The position numbers and the translations under genes were made by a program. 64,000 nucleotides of DNA from Pseudanabaena sp. lw0831 (lineage in GTDB: Bacteria; Cyanobacteriota; Cyanobacteriia; Pseudanabaenales; Pseudanabaenaceae). Positions 5,542 to 57,259 of this stretch are shown here, in pieces. Position 1 is the first letter of the stretch, and every line of letters starts with the position of its first letter. Location: NCBI RefSeq assembly GCF_016584665.1, contig NZ_BBJB01000115.1, positions 62,001-126,000 of the forward strand, read 5' to 3'. The notes under the pieces are model-generated. The model was given only the letters and a program-made list of their open reading frames with translations. It was not told the DNA's origin and made no database searches.

Positions 5542-6534
5542 TTAAGAGTGAGATTTGCCATCGGGCATAGTTGCGCCACTAAAAATTGTACCAATAGTAC
5601 TGGCTCCACTCATCTCAGCTCTGGTCAGCACAGCATCACTAAAATCGGCTCCATCAAGATTAGCTCTGACTAAATAAGCATCAACTAGACTAGCTTGGCT
5701 AAGATTTGCTTTGTCTAACAGCGATCGCGATAGATCGCTACCATTAAGTATTGCCTGAATCAATCCTGCGTTACTTAATGTTGTCATGGTCATATTCGCT
5801 TTAGTGAGATTTGCTCCAAATAAGTTTGCGAGCCGCAGGTTTGCATTTTTGAGATCAGCCTTGGTCAGGTTTGCACCTTTAAGGTTTGTCTCTGTGAGGT
5901 TTGCATTACTCAGATTTGCTTCAGTAAAAATTGTACCGCTCGCGATCGCGCCACTCAGATTAGCTCCTTGCAAATTAACTCTTGAGAGCGTCGCTTCACT
6001 CAGATTTGCGCCAGACAGATCAACGCCCGTAAGATCGGCTCCACTTAGGTTTGACCCGCGCAAATCGGCTTTGCGTAAATTTGCGCCGCTCATACTTGTA
6101 GGCGGATAGCCCCGCTCCTCTCGCATAAGAGTGGCACTCAGGATTGCACAGCGTAAATTTGCGCCACGGAGGTTGGCGCTGCGTAAATCTGCCTCACTTA
6201 GGTTGGCATCCATCAAGTTGGCAAGGGACAGATTTGCCCCAAATAGATTCACCCGTTGCAACATTGCTCCATGTAAATCCGCCTCGGACAGATTGGTACT
6301 CATCATGATCGCTTGGTTAAGCGTTGCACCACCGAGTTTTGCACCCGATAAATTGGCATGATTAAAGGTAACCTTGTTAAGAAAAGCAAATACAAGATTC
6401 GCTCGCCTCATGTCGGCTTTGGTCAAGTTAACGCCGATTAAATCGCTATTAAACAAATTGGCATTAGCTAGATTTAAGCTGGCAAAGTCACGCCGACCAG
6501 AAGCATATTCTTTCAGAAGTTTTTCTGCGCTCAT
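5542..6534 (-). CDS. Pentapeptide-repeat protein (330 residues)
   Basis: A short head (MSAEKLLKEYASGRRDFASL) is followed by about 58 consecutive pentapeptides of the ANLXX type. A short break near residues 133-145 (LMREERGYPPTS) interrupts the beta helix, perhaps as a loop. There is no signal peptide. The start codon is 36 bp after the stop of the SphS-like kinase gene on the same strand, so the two are probably co-transcribed; whether the function is linked is unknown. The C-terminal AEMSGASTIGTIFSGATMP still follows the repeat pattern loosely. It is a paralogue of the proteins at 1409-1996 and 38149-38880. Confidence 0.9.
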   Translation of the reverse strand: MSAEKLLKEYASGRRDFASLNLANANLFNSDLIGVNLTKADMRRANLVFAFLNKVTFNHANLSGAKLGGATLNQAIMMSTNLSEADLHGAMLQRVNLFGANLSLANLMDANLSEADLRSANLRGANLRCAILSATLMREERGYPPTSMSGANLRKADLRGSNLSGADLTGVDLSGANLSEATLSRVNLQGANLSGAIASGTIFTEANLSNANLTETNLKGANLTKADLKNANLRLANLFGANLTKANMTMTTLSNAGLIQAILNGSDLSRSLLDKANLSQASLVDAYLVRANLDGADFSDAVLTRAEMSGASTIGTIFSGATMPDGKSHS

Positions 6535-8364: not shown

Positions 8365-9996
8365 ATGCTGAACTTTCAAATACATTCTTCAAATAGAATT
8401 TCACAAGTGTTACGCCTTTTTTTTGTTTTTATCCTAGTCGTTGGAATTTTTTTGAGATTCAATGGTTTAGATAAAAGGGTTTACTGGTTAGATGAAGTTG
8501 CTACTTCATTTAGGATTGCAGGTTTCACAATAGCAGAAGTGGATCAACAACTTTACGATGGCAAAGTTGTTGATATAAACGCTCTCCAAAAATACCAAAA
8601 GCCCAATCCAGAGAGGAGTTGGGGCGATACTATTAACTCTTTGGTAGTCGATGATGCTCAACATCCACCGCTATATTTTGTAATGGTCAGATTTTGGGCT
8701 GAATTCGTTGGCAGTTCGCCTGCCGTAATCAGAATTTTATCTGTATTAATTAGCTTATTGATTTTCCCTTGTTTTTATTGGTTATGTATTGAGTTATTTA
8801 ATTCGGCAGTTTTTGGATGGATTGCTATTGCCTTAACTTCAGTTTCATTACTTCACTTAACCTATGCTCAAGAAGCAAGAGAATACAGTTTATGGATAGT
8901 AACAATCCTATTCTCAAGCGCTGCTTTACTTCGATCTATAAGGCTTAAAACTAAACTCAGTTTTGGGATTTATGGAACAAGTATAATTGTGGGACTATAT
9001 ACATTTCCGCTAACGGGAATTGTTTTATTAGGTCATGGAATTTATCTAGCTATTATAGAAAAGTTCCGATTGACAAAATCTTTAATTTATTTTTTAATTT
9101 CTGCATCTACTGCACTCCTAGCTTATATTCCTTGGATATGGATTATATTAACGAATACATCTAGAGTTAAAAGCACTACATCTTGGATGTTTGTTGAACG
9201 ACCTCTCCAAGATTTAATATATTTTTGGTTGGTCAATATTACCCATGTTTTTGTTCATCATTCAAGGTTTAGAATAGTCTTTCTTATAATATTTTTGACT
9301 TCACTTTACTTCATGTACAGTAAAGTCTCTAAGCATATATGGCTATTTGTATTGACATTAACATTGCCAACTCTAATTATATTTACATTAGCAGATTTAG
9401 TTTCTAAATCAAGTTTTTCTTTTTTTCCCAGATATCTATGGCCATTTTTGTTGGGAACCCAGATTGCTTTGACTTGTGTAATTGGCTATATGATTACATC
9501 AGAGTCAAATAAAAATTGGTTGAAAAAGACGGGGATGGCAATTCTTATCATTACCCTAATAATTGGGTTTACTGGTTCTACAGCAAAGTTGATTCAAGAT
9601 AGCAAGGATGATCAATTGAAGTTGGTTGCAGATACTGTAAATAAAAGTGATTCTTCTCTACTAATTAACTTTATAAGCAACGAGGAAAATATTTCTATTG
9701 GTGATATTGGCGATATATTTAGCCTAAGTTATTTAATACAAAATAAAGCAAAACTCTTTTTGTTTAAACAGCCTAATACTCCAAAAATTCCTAATCAATT
9801 TAAAGATATTTTTGTTTTTTATCATATCCATAGATATGACAAAGCTAATGACAAAGAACCTGATTTATCAGGAATTATTAAGCAAGGTTATCAAGTACAG
9901 CCAATAGTATTAAAAGAGGGTGACAAAACAATCCTTTGGAAATTAAAGCTAGCCGATAAACAGGCTTTCAACACCGAAAACTATAGCAATCCGTAA
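8365..9996 (+). CDS. GT-C fold membrane glycosyltransferase (GT39/ArnT-like)
   Basis: 543 residues with about eleven membrane segments and a C-terminal soluble part (~420-543). The first periplasmic loop holds an acidic motif, VYWLDEVATSFRIAG (residues ~38-52), and a later DDAQHPPLYFVMVRFW, both typical of PMT/ArnT-type enzymes, which use polyprenyl-phosphate sugars. The donor and acceptor are unknown; lipid, protein or polysaccharide are all possible. The gene is more A/T-rich than its neighbours, has few HIP1 sites, and stands alone between two repeat-bearing gaps, which could mean acquisition by transfer (inference). Confidence 0.85.
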   Translation: MLNFQIHSSNRISQVLRLFFVFILVVGIFLRFNGLDKRVYWLDEVATSFRIAGFTIAEVDQQLYDGKVVDINALQKYQKPNPERSWGDTINSLVVDDAQHPPLYFVMVRFWAEFVGSSPAVIRILSVLISLLIFPCFYWLCIELFNSAVFGWIAIALTSVSLLHLTYAQEAREYSLWIVTILFSSAALLRSIRLKTKLSFGIYGTSIIVGLYTFPLTGIVLLGHGIYLAIIEKFRLTKSLIYFLISASTALLAYIPWIWIILTNTSRVKSTTSWMFVERPLQDLIYFWLVNITHVFVHHSRFRIVFLIIFLTSLYFMYSKVSKHIWLFVLTLTLPTLIIFTLADLVSKSSFSFFPRYLWPFLLGTQIALTCVIGYMITSESNKNWLKKTGMAILIITLIIGFTGSTAKLIQDSKDDQLKLVADTVNKSDSSLLINFISNEENISIGDIGDIFSLSYLIQNKAKLFLFKQPNTPKIPNQFKDIFVFYHIHRYDKANDKEPDLSGIIKQGYQVQPIVLKEGDKTILWKLKLADKQAFNTENYSNP

Positions 9997-11513: not shown

Positions 11514-13334
11514 ATGCTTCAAAAAAAGTTTTTACTGGTATCGAGACCAAGATCAGTTATGAGTCTAGAGGAGGCTACTTTGCGAACAACGGGTGCATTT
11601 GCTCTCATCGACAGTGTGAGACGACAGGGTGTTAAGCATATTTTCGGCTACCCTGGTGGAGCAATCCTACCAGTGTACGATGAAATTTATAAGTTTGAGG
11701 CAAGAGGGGAGCTTAAGCATTACCTCGTGCGTCATGAGCAGGGAGCCGTCCATGCTGCGGATGGATATGCTCGCGCCACTGGAAATGTGGGTGTATGCGT
11801 TGCGACTTCAGGACCTGGAGCAACCAATTTGGTGACAGGTATTGCTACTGCGCAAATGGACTCGATTCCGATGGTGGTAATCACAGGGCAAGTTCCTTCC
11901 TATGCGATCGGTACTGATGCATTTCAAGAAACAGATATCTGGGGCATTACTCTTCCAATTGTTAAGCATTCCTATGTGATTCGTAGAGCTGAAGATATTG
12001 CGCGGATCGTTACTGAGGCTTTTCACATTGCAGGGACTGGTCGACCTGGACCAGTATTAATCGATATTCCTAAGGACATTGCTCAGAAATCATTTGAATA
12101 TAATCCTGATGTGAAGATTAACTTGCCTGGCTATCAGCCCAAGGTTAAGGGATATTTGCATCAAATTGCGGCAGCGATCGCGTTAATTCGTGAAGCCAAA
12201 AGACCATTACTTTATGCAGGTGGCGGTACGGTACTTGCCGATGCCCATGCTGAGCTTGCCGAATTCGCTAAACGCTTCCAGTTACCAGTGACCACAACCC
12301 TGATGGGGAAAGGTGCGTATGATGAAAATAATTACCTTTCCGTGGGCATGTTGGGAATGCATGGTACGGCCTATGCCAACTTTGCCGTACAGGGATGTGA
12401 TCTATTAATTGCGGTTGGTGCAAGATTTGACGATCGCGTTACGGGTCGTCTGGATAAATTTGCTCCCGAAGCCAAAGTTATTCATATTGACATTGATCCT
12501 GCGGAAGTTGGCAAAAATCGCAAACCCAATGTACCAATTGTTGGTGATGTAAAGGAAGTATTGCAGGCGATGCTTGAAGCTTCTAGTTATGAAGAAAATA
12601 TTCAAACTAAAGCGTGGTTGAGCAAGATTGATGAGTGGAAAGAAGACTATCCACTTGAAGTCCCTGCCTATGACAATGTGCTATCCCCACAACAAGTCAT
12701 CTATGAATTTGGCAGACAAGCTCCCAATGCTTATTTCACGACTGATGTTGGTCAGCACCAAATGTGGGCGGCTCAGTTAATTAAAACTGGACCTCGCAAG
12801 TGGATTTCGAGCGCAGGACTTGGCACGATGGGCTATGGAATGCCAGCGGCGATGGGTGCAAAAGTAGCTCTTCCCGACGATCAAGTCATCTGCATTAGCG
12901 GCGATGCCAGTATTCAGATGAATATTCAGGAGCTTGGCACATTGGCGCAGTATGGTATCAAGGTCAAAGTGATCATTATTAATAATGGTTGGCAAGGCAT
13001 GGTGCGTCAGTGGCAAGAAAGTTTCTATGATGAGCGCTACTCCTCTTCTAATATGGAAGTTGGTATGCCTGATTTTGTAAAGCTTGCTGAAGCCTTTGGC
13101 ATTAAAGGTATGAAGGTTATTGAGCCAAGTGATTTGCAATCTGCGGTTGCTGAGATTCTTGCCTATGATGGGCCAGTGTTTGCTGATTTCCGTGTTAAGC
13201 GCAATGAGAACTGTTATCCGATGGTTCCCCCAGGGGCAAGCAATGCGGAAATGGTGGGCTTGCAAACCCCAAAACTGCGGCTAAGCCAAGAAATGTCTGA
13301 GCCTGTGGCTCAGTTGGAAAGAGCTTTAGTTTAG
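11514..13334 (+). CDS. ilvB: Acetolactate synthase large subunit
   Basis: 606 residues. It catalyses the first common step of valine, leucine and isoleucine synthesis, joining two pyruvates, or pyruvate and 2-oxobutyrate, using ThDP, Mg and FAD. The N-terminal pyrimidine-binding domain has [18 protein letters not shown] (~39-56) and the catalytic glutamate in [16 protein letters not shown] (~71-86). The C-terminal ThDP domain has [14 protein letters not shown] (~463) through [15 protein letters not shown] (~487). MLQKK at 11514 is used here, but an inner ATG at 11559 ([16 protein letters not shown]) fits the family start better. No ilvN regulatory-subunit gene adjoins it. Confidence 0.96.
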
Positions 13335-14817: not shown

Positions 14818-15355
14818 AAACAATCATATCTGTGGCGAGTTGATTAGCGATCGCCTCACCTTGCAAAATTTCCGCTAACTTCAGCGCAAATGCCATAGCT
14901 GTGCCAGCACCACGACTGGTCACCACATTGCCATCAACGACCACAGGAATAGTCAAATAGTCCGCGACTTGCATCTGATCTTTAACCGATGGATAGGATG
15001 TGGCGCGTTTATCCTTGAGTAATCCTGCGGCGGACAGAACACTTGGAGCAGCACAGATGGCGGCGACGAGCTTATTAGCATCAGCATGGGCGATTAACAT
15101 TTTGGCAATGCGGGGATCTTCTCTGAGCCGAAAAGTACCCGCACCGCCAGCAAGTACGATCGCATCAAATTGACTTGCCTCGACTTGATCGAGAAGTGTA
15201 TCGGCAATAATGGCGATCGCATGAGCACCAATCACAGTTTGCGTAGCTAAACCTGCGGTAGTTACCTCAACCCCAGCTCGGCGCAACACATCGATAATCG
15301 TGATTGCTTCTATTTCTTCAAAACCTTCAAATAGAGGGACAAGTACGATAGGCAT
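14816..15355 (-). CDS. DJ-1/PfpI family protein (YajL-like)
   Basis: 179 residues, single class I glutamine-amidotransferase-like domain. The reactive cysteine is C101 in VAAICAAPSVLSAAGLL, and the conserved glutamate that lowers its pKa is in the N-terminal GFEEIEA motif. DAIVLAGGAG (~64-73) forms the nucleophile-elbow neighbour. Family members act as protein/nucleotide deglycases, glyoxalases or redox chaperones; which applies here cannot be decided from sequence. It lies 55 bp after the Zur-like regulator on the same strand, with a short hairpin between them at 15381-15417. Confidence 0.9.
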   Translation of the reverse strand: MPIVLVPLFEGFEEIEAITIIDVLRRAGVEVTTAGLATQTVIGAHAIAIIADTLLDQVEASQFDAIVLAGGAGTFRLREDPRIAKMLIAHADANKLVAAICAAPSVLSAAGLLKDKRATSYPSVKDQMQVADYLTIPVVVDGNVVTSRGAGTAMAFALKLAEILQGEAIANQLATDMIV

Positions 15356-51078: not shown

Positions 51079-51561
51079 TTAAATTGCTTCCCAGTCCTGA
51101 AAAGTTGCGGCTTGTCCCCAAAGTTCCCCCTCTTGGTCTACTACATTCCAGATAATCGCTTGGTCGATATAGAAGCGATCGCCTGTACTTGCAATCCTGA
51201 TCCCGCGATAATTACTAATATATCCTTGAGATTTTGCCTGAGCTAAAAGCTGTTCTCTTTCACCGCGTTCCATTACCTCAGCCGTATATCGTGATGGTGT
51301 TGAAATAAAAGTGTGCCAATCCATCTTCCATAAATCAAGTGCTTTTTGATTGCCATAGTTGAGAATCGGATCGGCTTGAGTGCCATGAGAAACAACTACG
51401 AGATTTGCATTGAATAGTAAATTTGCAATTTCTAACGGTGATTTGAGATCGGTAGTTGGGATTAAAATATTTCCAGTCCAATGCTGAAAGCTATAGAGTA
51501 ATAATTGGATATGTTGTAATAGTTCTTTTTGTAACCAAGGTTCAGTGTTATTTGTATTCAT
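51079..51561 (-). CDS. MEKHLA-domain protein, intact copy
   Basis: 160 residues, one MEKHLA domain. Core motifs are SHGTQADPILNYGNQKALDL (~79-98), W in KMDWHTFISTPSRYTAEVME (~100-119), and GYISNYRGIRIASTGDRFYI followed by NVVDQEGELWGQAATFQDW. MEKHLA is related to PAS and may bind a small ligand; in plants it is attached to HD-Zip III proteins. Most of this protein is duplicated at 52595-53077, about 80 percent identical by eye. The 289-bp gap upstream has a short open stretch near 51640-51749 (LPVSSFAESFQLTMDELVER) that could be a gene relic. Confidence 0.87.
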   Translation of the reverse strand: MNTNNTEPWLQKELLQHIQLLLYSFQHWTGNILIPTTDLKSPLEIANLLFNANLVVVSHGTQADPILNYGNQKALDLWKMDWHTFISTPSRYTAEVMERGEREQLLAQAKSQGYISNYRGIRIASTGDRFYIDQAIIWNVVDQEGELWGQAATFQDWEAI

Positions 51562-51850
51562 ACTTTGTCTTCAGTGGGCTGAATCCAATATATGACAGCT
51601 TCTACTCAAATTCTTGTGATTTTAGCGATCGCACGATTTCTATGTTTGAAAATAAAGGCGATCGCTTGCCTGTGTCATCCTTTGCAGAATCATTTCAGCT
51701 TACAATGGATGAATTAGTTGAAAGATTAAGCTTGCTGTTCAAGGCATAAGCTAATGAGTAGGCTATATTACACTTACAGTATGTTTTTATTTCTCATTAC
51801 TAGTATCGATGCTGAGTGATATTCCTTTAGTGTTGTAACAATCTAAAGAT

Positions 51851-52762
51851 ATGACAATTGAAGTTACAGAAGATTATCGAAGTTTGTTAGTGGCGGTGAA
51901 GCATCGGATTCGTGCTGCTCAGTATGAGGCTTTAAAGGCGGTCAATCGAGAGTTAATGGCGCTTTATTGGGATATTGGTGAGTTAATTGTTACTCGTCAA
52001 GAGAGCGCTGGTTGGGGTAAGTCAGTGGTGGAACAATTAGCTCAGGATTTGCAGGTTGAGTTTCATGGTATGGCTGGGTTTTCGGCGCGGAATATTTGGA
52101 GAATGCGGGATTTCTACCTTACTTACCACGGCAATGAAAAACTGACACCATTGGTGGCAGAAATTGGCTGGACTCATAATTTGGTGATCTTGGAGAAGTG
52201 TAAAGACGACTTGCAGAGAGAGTTTTACATTCGCATGACACAAAAATTTGGCTGGACAAAGAATGTGTTAATTCACCAAATCGAGAACAAAACCTACGAA
52301 AAGACTTTGCTGAATCAAACAAATTTTGATCGCACTTTGTCAGAGGAGATGCGCGATCGCGCCAAGCTTGCTGTTAAGGATGCATACACATTTGATTTTC
52401 TGGAATTAGCGGATGAACATAGTGAACGCGAACTTGAGAAGGCGATTTTGACAAGAGTGGAACCATTTTTGCAAGAGATGGGTGGGATGTTTACTTTTGT
52501 GGGTAGTCAATATCGTCTAGAGATTAGTGATGAGGAGTATTTTATTGATTTGTTGCTGTATCACCGTGGGCTGAAGTGTTTGGTGGCGGTTGAGTTAAAG
52601 ATTGGGAAGTTTTTGCCTGAATATGTGGGGAAGATGCAGTTTTATTTGGCGGCTTTGGACGATCGCGTGAGATTGGAGGGTGAGAATGCGGCGATCGCCT
52701 GTACTCGCAATCCTGATCCCGCGATAATTACTAATATATCCTTGCGATTTTGCCTGTGCTAA
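51851..52762 (+). CDS. DUF1016 PD-(D/E)XK nuclease (YhcG-like), C-terminus replaced
   Basis: 303 residues. The N-terminal DUF1016_N domain (RIRAAQYEALKAVNRELMAL, YWDIGELIV, GFSARNIWRMRDFYL) and the nuclease core FIDLLLYHRGLKCLVAVELK (Asp and ExK) are intact. The family normally continues past VRLEGENxxIG with IILCK and more. Here, from the HIP1 site at 52691, the last ~22 residues (CTRNPDPAIITNISLRFCLC) are read from the antisense strand of a MEKHLA gene. So it is a truncated nuclease with a foreign tail. Relatives act in defence or in DNA repair; activity here is doubtful. Confidence 0.85.
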   Translation: MTIEVTEDYRSLLVAVKHRIRAAQYEALKAVNRELMALYWDIGELIVTRQESAGWGKSVVEQLAQDLQVEFHGMAGFSARNIWRMRDFYLTYHGNEKLTPLVAEIGWTHNLVILEKCKDDLQREFYIRMTQKFGWTKNVLIHQIENKTYEKTLLNQTNFDRTLSEEMRDRAKLAVKDAYTFDFLELADEHSERELEKAILTRVEPFLQEMGGMFTFVGSQYRLEISDEEYFIDLLLYHRGLKCLVAVELKIGKFLPEYVGKMQFYLAALDDRVRLEGENAAIACTRNPDPAIITNISLRFCLC

Positions 52763-53077
52763 AAGTTGTTCTCTCTCACTAAGTTCCATTACCTCGGCAG
52801 TATATCGTGATGGAGTTGAAATAAAAGTGTGCCAATCCATTTTCCATAGATCGAGTGCTTTTTGATTGCCATAGTTAAGAATTGGATCGGCTTGAGAGCC
52901 ATGAGAAACAACTACAAAATTTGCATTAAATAATGAATCTGCGATTTCTAAAGGTGATTGGTAATTGGGAATCGTTAGTAAAGTATCACCAGTCCAATGA
53001 TGAAAGCTATAAAGCAATAATTGGATATGCTCCAATAACTGAGTTTGCAAACAAGGTTGAGATTTTTCTAGATACAT
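52595..53077 (-). pseudogene. MEKHLA-domain protein, second copy, 3'-truncated
   Basis: Starting at ATG 53077 (MYLEKSQPCLQTQLLEHIQL), it follows the copy at 51079-51561 closely up to ASTGDR. There the frame enters the antisense of the DUF1016 gene and runs 32 foreign residues (ILTLQSHAIVQSRQIK and onward) to a stop. The last ~30 residues of the domain, including ELWGQAATF, are missing. It starts 54 bp after the stop of the 1152-residue kinase gene on the same strand, so it may still be co-transcribed with it. Probably non-functional. Confidence 0.8.
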
Positions 53078-53130
53078 AATTTTTACTGCCGCGATCGCCA
53101 TAATGCTTTTATGATTTAGGCATTAAAGCT

Positions 53131-56100
53131 TCACAAGTGCTTCTTAAAAGATTCCACTACCGCCACAAATTCTTCTGGTTCAACTGGTTTGGGGACGTGA
53201 GACTGAAATCCTGCCTCTAGTGCCCTGATCCGATCTTGAGTTCGGGCATAGGCGGTAAGCGCGATCGCGGGAATCCTGCCACCCTGTTCTGGTGCTAAAT
53301 TTCGAAGTTGACGAATAAACATGTAGCCATCGACTTCTGGCATACCGATATCACTGACTAATAGGTCAGGTAGTTGTTCAGCATTACATTGCATGATTAT
53401 ATTTAAAGCATCCATAGCAGATGTTGCTATCTGTACCTCTGCTCCATTTATATTTAGTAGTGAGGCTAGCATTTCGCGGGCATCTACTTCATCATCCACA
53501 ATTAAAACCTTCATGCTTTCCAATCTAATTGCGTCGCTTAAAGAGGTTGCCTCGCTACTTGTAGGATGTACTTGCTCACGATGTTCAGAGTCTGGACGAA
53601 AGATCATGATCGGTAGATTGATCGTGAAGGTGGCTCCTAATCCTTCTCCTGCACTGTCTGCATACACTTTACCGCCGTGTAGCTCGATTAAATGACGGAC
53701 AATTGCTAGCCCTAATCCCAAGCCACCATGTACTCTAGTAGTCTTACTATCAGCTTGTTGTAAGCGATCAAAAACATATGGTAGAAATTCAGGACTAATT
53801 CCCTGACCAGTATCACTTACGGTAACTTCAACATAAGAATCAACTCGTTGCAGTCGAATCTGAACTTGACCATTTTTGGGCGTAAACTTAACGGCATTGG
53901 TAAGTAAATTCCAAAGCACCTGTTGGAGGCGATCCAAATCGCCAGAAACAAGCCCAGCATCAGGGTCTAAAATACTTTGAATGCGAATATTTTTAGCTTC
54001 CGCAGCAGGACGAATGGAATCGAGCGCTGAGTTAATTAATGGAATAAGGGTATGTGGACGGACATCTAAGCGGAGTTTTCCAGTTATGATACGAGATACA
54101 TCTAATAAATCGTTAATCAACTGATTTTGAGCCCTAGCACTACGTTCAATTGTCTCTAGCGCTTGCTCTGTCTTGACTGCATCTAGCTTTCTAGTACGCA
54201 GCATTGTCGCATAGCCCAATATGGCATTGAGAGGAGTCCGTAACTCATGAGAAACCGTGGCCAGAAATTCATCTTTTACCTGATTTATTCTAGATAACTC
54301 CTCGGTTTGCTTACGTAACAAAGTCTCAGACTTTTTACTTTCAGTTAGATCTACAACATAGCACACCCAACCAAGTTGCCCCTTTTCGATCGGTGTCGCT
54401 CCAATCAGAATTGGTAAATGACTACCATCTTTGCAGATATATTCTTTCTCATGTGGTGTAGCGCTTCCAGAGGTGATTAGTTCATGTATAACTTTCATAT
54501 CTTGTTCAATGCACTCGGGGGGTGTCATTGCTTTCCAGTTCACTTCCCCATTTTCTAATTCTTCTCGTGTGTAACCAACCATTTTCAAAAAAGCATCGTT
54601 GGCTTCTGTGATCGTGCCATCACCTGCTGCCACAATTACCCCCATAAGGTTGTTGGCTTCAATTAGCCGATTAACATGAGCTTCACTTTTTTGCAAGGCA
54701 ATTTGTTGAGCTTTTAAGTCTTCTGATAAGGATTCGGCTTGCTGTCTGGCTACAACCTGTTTAGTGACGTCAAAGCCAAAGACTAAGACTCCTTCAATAA
54801 TATTATTACTATCGTAGAGAGCTTGGTAGATTAAATTGACGAATATTTTATCCAAGTTGCCATCACCACGTCGATTTAATAGAACTGGCATTTCTTCACC
54901 GAAGAACGTCACTCCAGTGTCAAATACCTGATCAAGCAGTTCAAAAAATCCCTGTCCTTCTAGTTCGGGGAAGGCTTCTCGCACAGTGCGACCGATTAGT
55001 TCGCGGTTGCCAGTTATCTCATAATAGGGAGCATTAGCAAACTCAAACTTAAGCTCGCGACCACGACCAATCGCAATAAAAGCGGGAGCTTGCAGCAGAA
55101 TTGAGTTAAGGCGACTTCGTTGAAACTCTGCCTCTGCACGAGCAGTTTGTTCTAGTTGAAGAAGGCGATCGCGTTCTATTTCTATTTCTTTACGCCCAGT
55201 AATATCAATCACAGAACCAACGTAACCCTCAAAATGTCCCTCTTCTGTAATTCGAGGGCTAGCTGCATCAATTGCCCAACGATACTCACCATCTTTACGT
55301 CGGAAGCGGTATTCTACACGAAATGCTGCATGGTTCTGATTAGCAGTAATAAATGAGTTTTCAGCATATTCACGATCTTCTGGGTGCGTCGCATCTAACC
55401 AGCCAAATCCTAAGCCTGTCTCTTCAGTTTGTCCTGTGAAGTCATACCAACTTTGGCTAAGAAATGTACAGTAGCCTGTAGAATCGGTAACCCAGATCAT
55501 AACTGGTGCATTATTAGCCATGTTACGGAAACGTCCTTCGCTTTCCTGTAGAGCTTCAGCACGTCTTTGTTCAGATTTATAGGTGTTTACATTGTCCAGC
55601 GCTATATCCATTTGAATATTAGCAAGTTCCAAAAATTCTTGATACTTTTCATTTAGGACTAAGCGAGGACTAATCCCGATGATCAGAAAACCAATAACTT
55701 GTTGGGTAGAACTACTAATTAGAGGCAGACTTAGAGCTGTATGCGGTGGTTCTGGATAAAGCCACTCTCCTGCTTCTGCAAATCCATCCCAAGCAGTGAG
55801 ATCTGTCACTACTTGCTTAGTAAGACTTTGCATAGGCTTAGACCACGGATAGATATCAGTCTGCTCATTTAGGGTCACTACATCAGGAGTAAAACTTGTA
55901 GCAGGTAATAATCCGCTAGCCCCTGCTAAGTTCGCTTTAACACCATTTTGGTCTAATAAATAAATTAGCGCAAATAGCACGTCCTCACGATTAGTGGTTA
56001 GCACTTCAGTACTAGTTTGACAAATCTGTTCGCTTAAGAGAACTTCATGAAGCTGCGCGGCTAAGTTTCGTAAAACTCTGACGCGGCGCTCCGCTAAAAC

Positions 56101-56589
56101 CTGCTTTGTTGTCTCAGTTACGGTTACTAAAATCCCATTAATGCTGCTGTCATCATCACGTAACGGGCTATAAGAGTAGATAAAATGTGTCTCCTCTATA
56201 AATCCCTCACGATTCATATAGAGGATAAAATCATCGGAACTAACCGCTATTCCAGTAGTGAGTACTTGTTCAAACATTGGGTTTATAACATCCCAAATCT
56301 CTCGCCAGCAGTCCCGAGCGCATTGCCCCATGGCATAAGGATGCTTCAGTGAACCAAGAATAGGTCGGTAGCCATCGTTGTACATCTGCACCAAATCTGG
56401 TCCCCAGAAAATCAACATGCCAAAGTCGTTGCTTAGCATCATACTTACTAAGGTACGGAGGCTATAAGGCCAGCTTTCGACTGCACCTAAGGGGGTACGC
56501 GACCAATCTAGCGATCGCATTAGCTCCCCCATTTCGCCGCCACCTGCAAACAACGTATCTACCGTTCTTGGTTTACCATCTTCAGCCAC
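53131..56589 (-). CDS. Multi-PAS hybrid histidine kinase (1152 residues)
   Basis: No membrane segment. The N-terminal part (residues ~25-165: SLDWSRTPLGAVESWPYSLR, IFWGPDLVQMYNDGYRPILG) is a PAS-like sensor common in proteobacterial and cyanobacterial kinases. It is followed by a GAF (~170-335) and three PAS domains (~345-465, ~490-610, ~630-755), none of them LOV. HisKA has its histidine in ATVSHELRTPLNAILGY (~790), then HATPase_c (LLTNAVKFTPKNG, VSDTGQGISPEFL, GLGLGLAIVRHL) and a receiver domain with LLVSDIGMPEVDGYMF (~1080). The signal is unknown. The MEKHLA copy follows after 54 bp. Confidence 0.9.
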   Translation of the reverse strand: MAEDGKPRTVDTLFAGGGEMGELMRSLDWSRTPLGAVESWPYSLRTLVSMMLSNDFGMLIFWGPDLVQMYNDGYRPILGSLKHPYAMGQCARDCWREIWDVINPMFEQVLTTGIAVSSDDFILYMNREGFIEETHFIYSYSPLRDDDSSINGILVTVTETTKQVLAERRVRVLRNLAAQLHEVLLSEQICQTSTEVLTTNREDVLFALIYLLDQNGVKANLAGASGLLPATSFTPDVVTLNEQTDIYPWSKPMQSLTKQVVTDLTAWDGFAEAGEWLYPEPPHTALSLPLISSSTQQVIGFLIIGISPRLVLNEKYQEFLELANIQMDIALDNVNTYKSEQRRAEALQESEGRFRNMANNAPVMIWVTDSTGYCTFLSQSWYDFTGQTEETGLGFGWLDATHPEDREYAENSFITANQNHAAFRVEYRFRRKDGEYRWAIDAASPRITEEGHFEGYVGSVIDITGRKEIEIERDRLLQLEQTARAEAEFQRSRLNSILLQAPAFIAIGRGRELKFEFANAPYYEITGNRELIGRTVREAFPELEGQGFFELLDQVFDTGVTFFGEEMPVLLNRRGDGNLDKIFVNLIYQALYDSNNIIEGVLVFGFDVTKQVVARQQAESLSEDLKAQQIALQKSEAHVNRLIEANNLMGVIVAAGDGTITEANDAFLKMVGYTREELENGEVNWKAMTPPECIEQDMKVIHELITSGSATPHEKEYICKDGSHLPILIGATPIEKGQLGWVCYVVDLTESKKSETLLRKQTEELSRINQVKDEFLATVSHELRTPLNAILGYATMLRTRKLDAVKTEQALETIERSARAQNQLINDLLDVSRIITGKLRLDVRPHTLIPLINSALDSIRPAAEAKNIRIQSILDPDAGLVSGDLDRLQQVLWNLLTNAVKFTPKNGQVQIRLQRVDSYVEVTVSDTGQGISPEFLPYVFDRLQQADSKTTRVHGGLGLGLAIVRHLIELHGGKVYADSAGEGLGATFTINLPIMIFRPDSEHREQVHPTSSEATSLSDAIRLESMKVLIVDDEVDAREMLASLLNINGAEVQIATSAMDALNIIMQCNAEQLPDLLVSDIGMPEVDGYMFIRQLRNLAPEQGGRIPAIALTAYARTQDRIRALEAGFQSHVPKPVEPEEFVAVVESFKKHL

Positions 56590-57259
56590 GATTCTTACTC
56601 CAGTCCTAATGAAAAATGTTAAAATAACAGACTTTATTTTTTGTTTTAAATTACTTCTAAATTAAAAGGAGTAAGGAGTCCTTGAAAGAAGAAGCAAACC
56701 TGCGTTAATGCTATGCTAAGAGACTAAATCATGTCCATTTTCTCAATTACTAAGGGCTTTTATAGAGTGTACTGCGTTTTATTTTTAGATTAGGTTAAAG
56801 AAATATAAATCTTTCTTTAGATATATAAGAAAACATTTAAGAATTGTCTAGATCCCCCCCAGCCCCCCTTAAAAAGCTACCGTGTACACACAAGTCGAAA
56901 GACTGTGCACACAAGTCCTAAAACCCTTGCTGTACAAGCTTTCCAAAAAAGATACATATTGTCAATAATTTAAGCTTATTGACAATATCGAACGAAAAAT
57001 AAAGGTTTCAAGAACCAAAATTTTTCTAAATCGGGTTTATACCGACTTGTGTGTACACGGTAGCTTAAAAAGAGGGGAGAATTTAATTCTTCCCTCTTTT
57101 TAAGGGGGATTGAGGAGGATCTCTTAGAGCTTTTGACCGTAGAAAGTAATTCTTAAATGGTTTCTAAAGTTTATACTCTTCATCATAAGTTTTGGTAGAA
57201 AATGGAGAAGCAGTAAAGAGAAATAGCCCCAAAGTATTGCAGTCTATAAATAGTAGGAT
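56590..57259. other. 670-bp gap between divergent kinase and priA genes
   Basis: No supported ORF. It holds a large imperfect palindrome built of GATCCCCCCCAGCCCCCCTT on the left (56851 on) and AAGGGGGATTGAGGAGGATC on the right (57102 on), with AGAGGGGAGAATTTAATTCT TCCCTCT in the middle. A separate 191-bp element (56875-57065) is inserted in it. The outer ~190 bp toward priA and ~230 bp toward the kinase are A/T-rich and should contain the promoters, but I see no confident -10/-35 pair. Confidence 0.7.
56875..57065. mobile_element. MITE-like element with 23-bp perfect terminal inverted repeats
   Basis: The ends AGCTACCGTGTACACACAAG and the exact inverse CTTGTGTGTACACGGTAGCT (23 bp with TCG/CGA inside) bound 191 bp without an ORF. 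TAAAA flanks each end and could be a target-site duplication. Inside are a second partial end (TGTGCACACAAGTCC) and a palindrome (TATTGTCAATAA ... TTATTGACAATA, 56957-56990). It interrupts the larger CCCCTT/AAGGGG palindrome, so it arrived later. No transposase is in the window that clearly matches these ends. Confidence 0.7.

What the first reader, a model, noticed from the sequence alone, without database searches (positions are those of the whole stretch)
52595..52762. Nuclease and MEKHLA genes fused tail-to-tail exactly at a HIP1 octamer
GCGATCGC at 52691-52698 is the junction. To the left the sequence is a normal DUF1016 nuclease; to the right it matches the antisense of the intact MEKHLA gene, starting from that gene's own GCGATCGC (51175-51182). 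Both genes lose their 3' ends and read into each other's antisense strand. HIP1 is the most common octamer in cyanobacteria, and this is a clear example that it can serve as a recombination point.
Basis: seen in the sequence. Interest (0 to 1): 0.66.

Follow-up and report, generated by a model that had tools for sequence, protein, structure and literature searches.

The report
Two broken genes joined by microhomology
In a freshwater cyanobacterium a nuclease gene and a spare MEKHLA gene have both lost their ends and been joined tail to tail, but the famous palindrome at the joint came from only one of the two genes, so this is an ordinary small rearrangement scar and not evidence that the palindrome is a recombination site.

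Summary
The joint is real. A DUF1016/YhcG nuclease gene (51851-52690) loses its last ~58 codons and runs into the antisense of a second, 3'-truncated MEKHLA gene (MEKHLA2). The two ORFs overlap tail to tail at 52595-52762, with GCGATCGC at 52691-52698. The window is Pseudanabaena, and the joint occurs in only one of 26 genus genomes. The mechanistic interpretation fails. Intact DUF1016 genes in six sister Pseudanabaena species read GCGATTGG at this point, and none of the roughly 75 aligned homologues carries HIP1 there (the next residue is a near-invariant Gly). HIP1 is ancestral on the MEKHLA side only (19 of 23 relatives). The two parents therefore shared just GCGAT, 5 bp. A genuine HIP1/HIP1 pair (8 bp) and a 9-bp AAGCGATCG pair were available between the same genes and were not used. 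In a survey of 76 synteny breakpoints on this contig HIP1 is not enriched (3 observed, 1.8 expected), and none of 11 clean larger indels has HIP1 in its repeat. Best reading: a recent illegitimate, microhomology-mediated deletion or rearrangement in this lineage, inside a variable cargo region between MEKHLA1 and priA, leaving two probable pseudogenes.

The parts
51851..52690 (+). Retained part of a DUF1016/YhcG (PD-DExK) nuclease gene, 280 of 338 codons
   Evidence: Pfam DUF1016_N + YhcG_C truncated at profile position 111/157; 92-97% DNA identity to intact genes in sister species; PADLOC PDC-S02 candidate model
52691..52695 (.). GCGAT, the 5-bp microhomology shared by both parents: the true joint
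   Evidence: intact DUF1016 reads gcgGCGATTGG; MEKHLA relatives read aaGCGATCGCC; computed overlap 0+5 nt
52691..52698 (.). HIP1 octamer GCGATCGC at the joint, inherited from the MEKHLA side (its GDR codons)
   Evidence: HIP1 present at this position in 19 of 23 genus MEKHLA genes, in none of the DUF1016 homologues
52699..53101 (-). Retained 5' part of MEKHLA2, 3' end lost
   Evidence: Pfam MEKHLA 2-113 of 143; direct repeat D1 with 51175-51474
52595..52762 (.). Tail-to-tail overlap of the two ORFs: DUF1016 tail CTRNPDPAIITNISLRFCLC (+), MEKHLA2 tail RILTLQSHAIVQSRQIKLHLPHIFRQKLPNL (-), each read from the antisense of the other
51079..51561 (-). Intact MEKHLA1, syntenic with DUF4079 in relatives (ancestral copy)
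51619..51749 (+). C-terminal fragment of a Uma2-like gene; left edge 6 bp outside a HIP1 (51625-51632)
   Evidence: alignment to intact ~190-aa genes in sister genomes; the Uma2 name rests on my reading of the sequence, not on a profile search
51804..51805 (.). Older deletion joint: ~252 bp holding a small antitoxin-like ORF lost from upstream of DUF1016; no HIP1; shared with G012
53131..56589 (-). Hybrid sensor histidine kinase directly upstream of MEKHLA2, no close orthologue in the genus at DNA level

Best explanation
The joint is a scar of illegitimate, microhomology-mediated recombination, most simply a deletion. An intact DUF1016 gene, and an intact MEKHLA2 lying further right on the opposite strand, each lost their 3' ends together with whatever lay between. 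The broken ends were joined over 5 shared bases, GCGAT. The HIP1 seen at the joint is the MEKHLA parent's ordinary GDR-codon HIP1, of which only the first five bases were matched in DUF1016. The event happened in the lineage of this strain, inside a variable cargo region between MEKHLA1 and priA. It left two probable pseudogenes. Shown: the joint, the parental sequences on both sides, the 5-bp homology, and absence of the joint from relatives. Inferred: that it was a deletion and not an insertion or inversion, that it is recent, and that the two products are non-functional.
For: Intact DUF1016 continues past the joint as GCGATTGG... in all six sister species, and no homologue has HIP1 there. 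MEKHLA relatives have HIP1 preceded by AA, so homology does not extend left. Among all possible joints of the two genes only 0.6% share 5 bp or more, so microhomology probably mattered. Longer HIP1-containing matches (8 and 9 bp) were available and not used. G012 keeps an intact DUF1016 with the same upstream DNA (130 of 131 bases identical over 51720-51850) before priA, so the intact state is ancestral here. The joint is absent from 25 other genus genomes, from plasmid records and from viral contigs. The retained DUF1016 shows strong purifying selection (G000 vs UBA1465: 31 synonymous, 2 non-synonymous; dN/dS 0.015) and no stop codons, as expected for a recent break. Clean indels between these genomes typically show 2-15 bp repeats without HIP1.
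Against: The ancestral arrangement with DUF1016 intact next to intact MEKHLA2 was not found in any genome, so deletion is inferred, and an insertion or translocation of the MEKHLA2-kinase block is possible. The immediate ancestor of this strain could have carried a private C at the sixth base (giving 6-7 bp of homology). Purifying selection on the retained part would also fit a truncated but still useful protein. Only one genome per species is held, so the age within the species is unknown.
Confidence: 0.75

Rival explanations
1. HIP1 x HIP1 recombination: both genes carried the octamer and recombined through it.
For: The present joint reads a full HIP1, indeed GGCGATCGCC, the longer form reviewed in PMC4390886 together with site-specific plasmid recombination in Synechococcus PCC 7002. 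A random cut would touch HIP1 only ~1.5% of the time.
Against: No DUF1016 homologue has HIP1 there, and the codon after Ile is near-invariant Gly. The true HIP1 pair between the genes (DUF1016 position 503, window ~52353) was not used. No HIP1 enrichment at 76 breakpoints.
Confidence: 0.06
2. One-sided HIP1 event: a cut or fragile site in MEKHLA's (methylated) HIP1/CGATCG, repaired by joining to a GCGAT elsewhere.
For: The joint falls inside MEKHLA's HIP1, between GCGAT and CGC. Published insertions inside HIP1 and HIP1-linked recombination are reviewed in PMC4390886. A second fragment edge (51619) lies 6 bp from a HIP1.
Against: HIP1 is not enriched at breakpoints, and other clean indels use unrelated repeats. 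HIP1 is so common that chance explains one case.
Confidence: 0.07
3. Insertion or translocation of a MEKHLA2-kinase block into DUF1016, with the rest of DUF1016 lost at the other end (still a microhomology joint on this side).
For: The kinase has no close orthologue in the genus at DNA level; the region is a cargo site.
Against: No DUF1016 3' remnant was seen on the far side of the block (no such repeat or in the comparison with intact G012 DNA); no integrase in the insert.
Confidence: 0.2
4. Assembly chimera.
For: Draft genome of 118 contigs; no reads available.
Against: The two MEKHLA copies differ by ~12% and share only 15 exact bases at the joint, too little for a normal k-mer assembler to misjoin. 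The joint lies well inside a 126-kb contig.
Confidence: 0.04

Closest known systems
Illegitimate (microhomology-mediated) deletion joints in bacterial genomes
   Same: Short (5-bp) shared sequence retained once at the joint; both genes truncated; unique to one lineage
   Different: Nothing distinctive except that the shared five bases are the start of a HIP1 on one side
HIP1-associated recombination/excision (Akiyama 1998 in Synechococcus PCC 7002; Robinson 1997 in PCC 7942 and E. coli; both as reviewed in Elhai 2015, PMC4390886; the HIP1-bordered smt-locus deletion is from my own memory, not checked)
   Same: Joint now reads HIP1 / GGCGATCGCC
   Different: Only one parent carried HIP1; the other had GCGATTGG
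DUF1016/YhcG PD-DExK nuclease family (Pfam PF17761 + PF06250; PADLOC candidate PDC-S02)
   Same: Domain order; the stretch FIDLLLYH...VAVELKIGKF, which I take for the PD-DExK motif, is retained
   Different: Last ~58 residues replaced by about 20 antisense residues

Membership tests
HIP1-mediated (HIP1 x HIP1) recombination | Both parents carry GCGATCGC at the joint | tested here: not met
   MEKHLA yes (19 of 23); DUF1016 no (none of ~75 homologues; six sister species all GCGATTGG)
HIP1-mediated (HIP1 x HIP1) recombination | HIP1 over-represented at rearrangement breakpoints in the genome | tested here: not met
   76 breakpoints on one contig: 3 vs 1.8 expected at +/-3 bp, 4 vs 3.1 at +/-8 bp; low power against mild enrichment
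Microhomology-mediated illegitimate recombination | Short homology shared by both parental sequences, one copy left at the joint | tested here: met
   GCGAT 5 bp, 0.6% of random joints reach this
Microhomology-mediated illegitimate recombination | RecA-independent end joining or replication slippage | not testable with these tools
   needs genetics
DUF1016/YhcG nuclease (intact member) | Complete DUF1016_N plus YhcG_C domains | tested here: not met
   YhcG_C cut at position 111 of 157
MEKHLA domain protein (MEKHLA2, intact member) | Complete MEKHLA domain | tested here: not met
   113 of 143 positions

The most novel reading that the evidence does not exclude
A one-sided mechanism: cyanobacterial cells sometimes cut or stall inside (methylated) HIP1/CGATCG sites, and the ends are joined to any available GCGAT, so that joints recreate HIP1 without needing it in both parents.
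Probability: 0.07. Interest if true: 0.55.

Novelty: new member of a known kind. Interest (0 to 1): 0.18.

Why it matters
A motif present once every ~590 bp will sit at some breakpoints by chance. Checking the intact parents shows that the octamer at a joint need not have been in both of them. Any survey of HIP1 at gene breaks must therefore score the parental sequences, not the finished joint.

Tried and rejected
G006 vs G007 gave only 136 kb of overlap, mostly at ~99% identity, and three clean indels. Recent tandem duplication of MEKHLA1 as the source of MEKHLA2 was rejected: 12% divergence, dS ~0.5, long separate branch. Source of the kinase-MEKHLA2 block: no match in 38 genomes of the order at DNA level beyond short conserved stretches and dispersed repeats. 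Joint searched in plasmids and viral contigs: none. The original HIP1 papers of Robinson 1995 and Delaye 2011 were not held.

Full report
WHAT IS THERE. GCGATCGC stands at 52691-52698 and 51175-51182, and a 300-nt direct repeat of 87% identity begins exactly at these two octamers. The + strand ORF 51851-52762 is a DUF1016_N plus YhcG_C nuclease whose YhcG_C match stops at profile position 111 of 157. The - strand ORF 52595-53101 is a MEKHLA protein whose match stops at 113 of 143, while the neighbour 51079-51561 is complete. The two ORFs overlap tail to tail over 168 bp and each ends in residues read from the other's antisense strand.

WHERE IT IS. The window lies at G000:C115:62001-126000 in a genome of 5.26 Mb; its close relatives are Pseudanabaena. 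In G023 the order is DUF520, DUF4079, MEKHLA, then priA about 110 bp further on. In the window and in G004, G012 and G016 different cargo sits between the MEKHLA side and priA. In G012 an intact DUF1016 (338 aa), with almost the same upstream DNA (130 of 131 bases over 51720-51850), lies before priA and is followed by an NB-ARC/TPR-like gene. An intact DUF1016 at this site therefore precedes the broken one.

THE PARENTS OF THE JOINT. I aligned the joint with intact DUF1016 homologues. All six sister Pseudanabaena species (G002, G003, G005, G011, G012, G016) read gaatgcgGCGATTGG. None of the ~75 homologues from cyanobacteria and beyond has GCGATCGC there, and the codon after Ile is a near-invariant glycine, so the best any reaches is GCGATCGG. 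On the MEKHLA side 19 of 23 genus genes have HIP1 at this position, always preceded by AA. The sequence common to both parents is therefore GCGAT, 52691-52695, five bases. The rest of the octamer, CGC, comes from MEKHLA only.

IS FIVE BASES MEANINGFUL, AND IS HIP1? Over all possible joints between the two genes, 0.6% share five bases or more, so microhomology was probably used. There are 453 shared words of five or more bases, and 8 of them (1.8%) would give a joint that touches HIP1. These include a genuine 8-bp HIP1/HIP1 pair using the DUF1016 HIP1 at ~52353 and a 9-bp AAGCGATCG pair in the DUF1016 tail. Neither was used. A random cut in this window falls in or at the edge of a HIP1 1.5% of the time. 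That is an unremarkable figure for an observation picked after the fact from 64 kb.

BREAKPOINT SURVEY. Contig C115 was compared with G016:C7, G012:C16/C9 and G020:C157. Of 76 distinct homology breakpoints, 3 lie within 3 bp of a HIP1 (1.8 expected) and 4 within 8 bp (3.1 expected), the joint itself included. Eleven clean larger indels (67 bp or more), eight on C115 and three between G006 and G007, carry 2-15 bp repeats at their ends, and none contains HIP1 (two of the eight are one event seen against two relatives). HSP ends are only accurate to a few bases and 76 events cannot exclude a mild excess, but there is no sign that HIP1 is the usual joint.

AGE AND FATE. No other genome of the genus has the joint, and it was not found in plasmid records or viral contigs. 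The retained DUF1016 part differs from that of UBA1465 by 31 synonymous and 2 non-synonymous changes. MEKHLA2 has dN/dS 0.16-0.21 against orthologues of its own species group, where those orthologues show 0.07-0.13 among themselves. Both fit a recent break. A still-useful truncated nuclease cannot be excluded. MEKHLA2 is not a recent copy of MEKHLA1: dS is ~0.5 and it forms a long branch inside the same species group.

RELATION TO WHAT IS KNOWN. HIP1 has been linked to site-specific plasmid recombination in PCC 7002 and to low-frequency excision in PCC 7942 and E. coli, as reviewed by Elhai 2015 (PMC4390886). The scar is an ordinary microhomology joint in a gene graveyard that also holds a Uma2-like fragment and an older antitoxin deletion.

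VERDICT. Observation confirmed; the structural part of the interpretation (two truncated genes joined tail to tail) is correct; the mechanistic claim about HIP1 is not supported.

Noticed in passing
L155 (G004) 8445-8559 and 14823-15208; L146 (G012) 5853-5892 and 11709-12001: The first 40-115 bp of priA are duplicated on the far side of the cargo between the MEKHLA side and priA in two species, as if elements integrate into the 5' end of priA and re-form it; the cargo includes large repeat proteins and DUF1016. No integrase was seen.
   Followed up: partly
51619-51749: C-terminal fragment of a Uma2-like gene fused behind MEKHLA1's upstream region, shared by G000, G016 and G020; in G012 the same fragment has a different left neighbour that begins at nearly the same base, 4-6 bp from a HIP1.
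   Followed up: partly
51804-51805: About 252 bp with a small antitoxin-like ORF, present upstream of DUF1016 in L004 (UBA1465) and L006 (P. cinerea), is missing here and in G012; the joint has no HIP1.
   Followed up: partly
56816-57171: Dispersed ~100-bp repeat (MITE-like) upstream of priA, with many copies at ~90-97% identity across the genus.
   Followed up: no
53131-56589: Large hybrid histidine kinase with several PAS domains, immediately upstream of MEKHLA2, with no close DNA-level orthologue in 38 genomes of the order.
   Followed up: no
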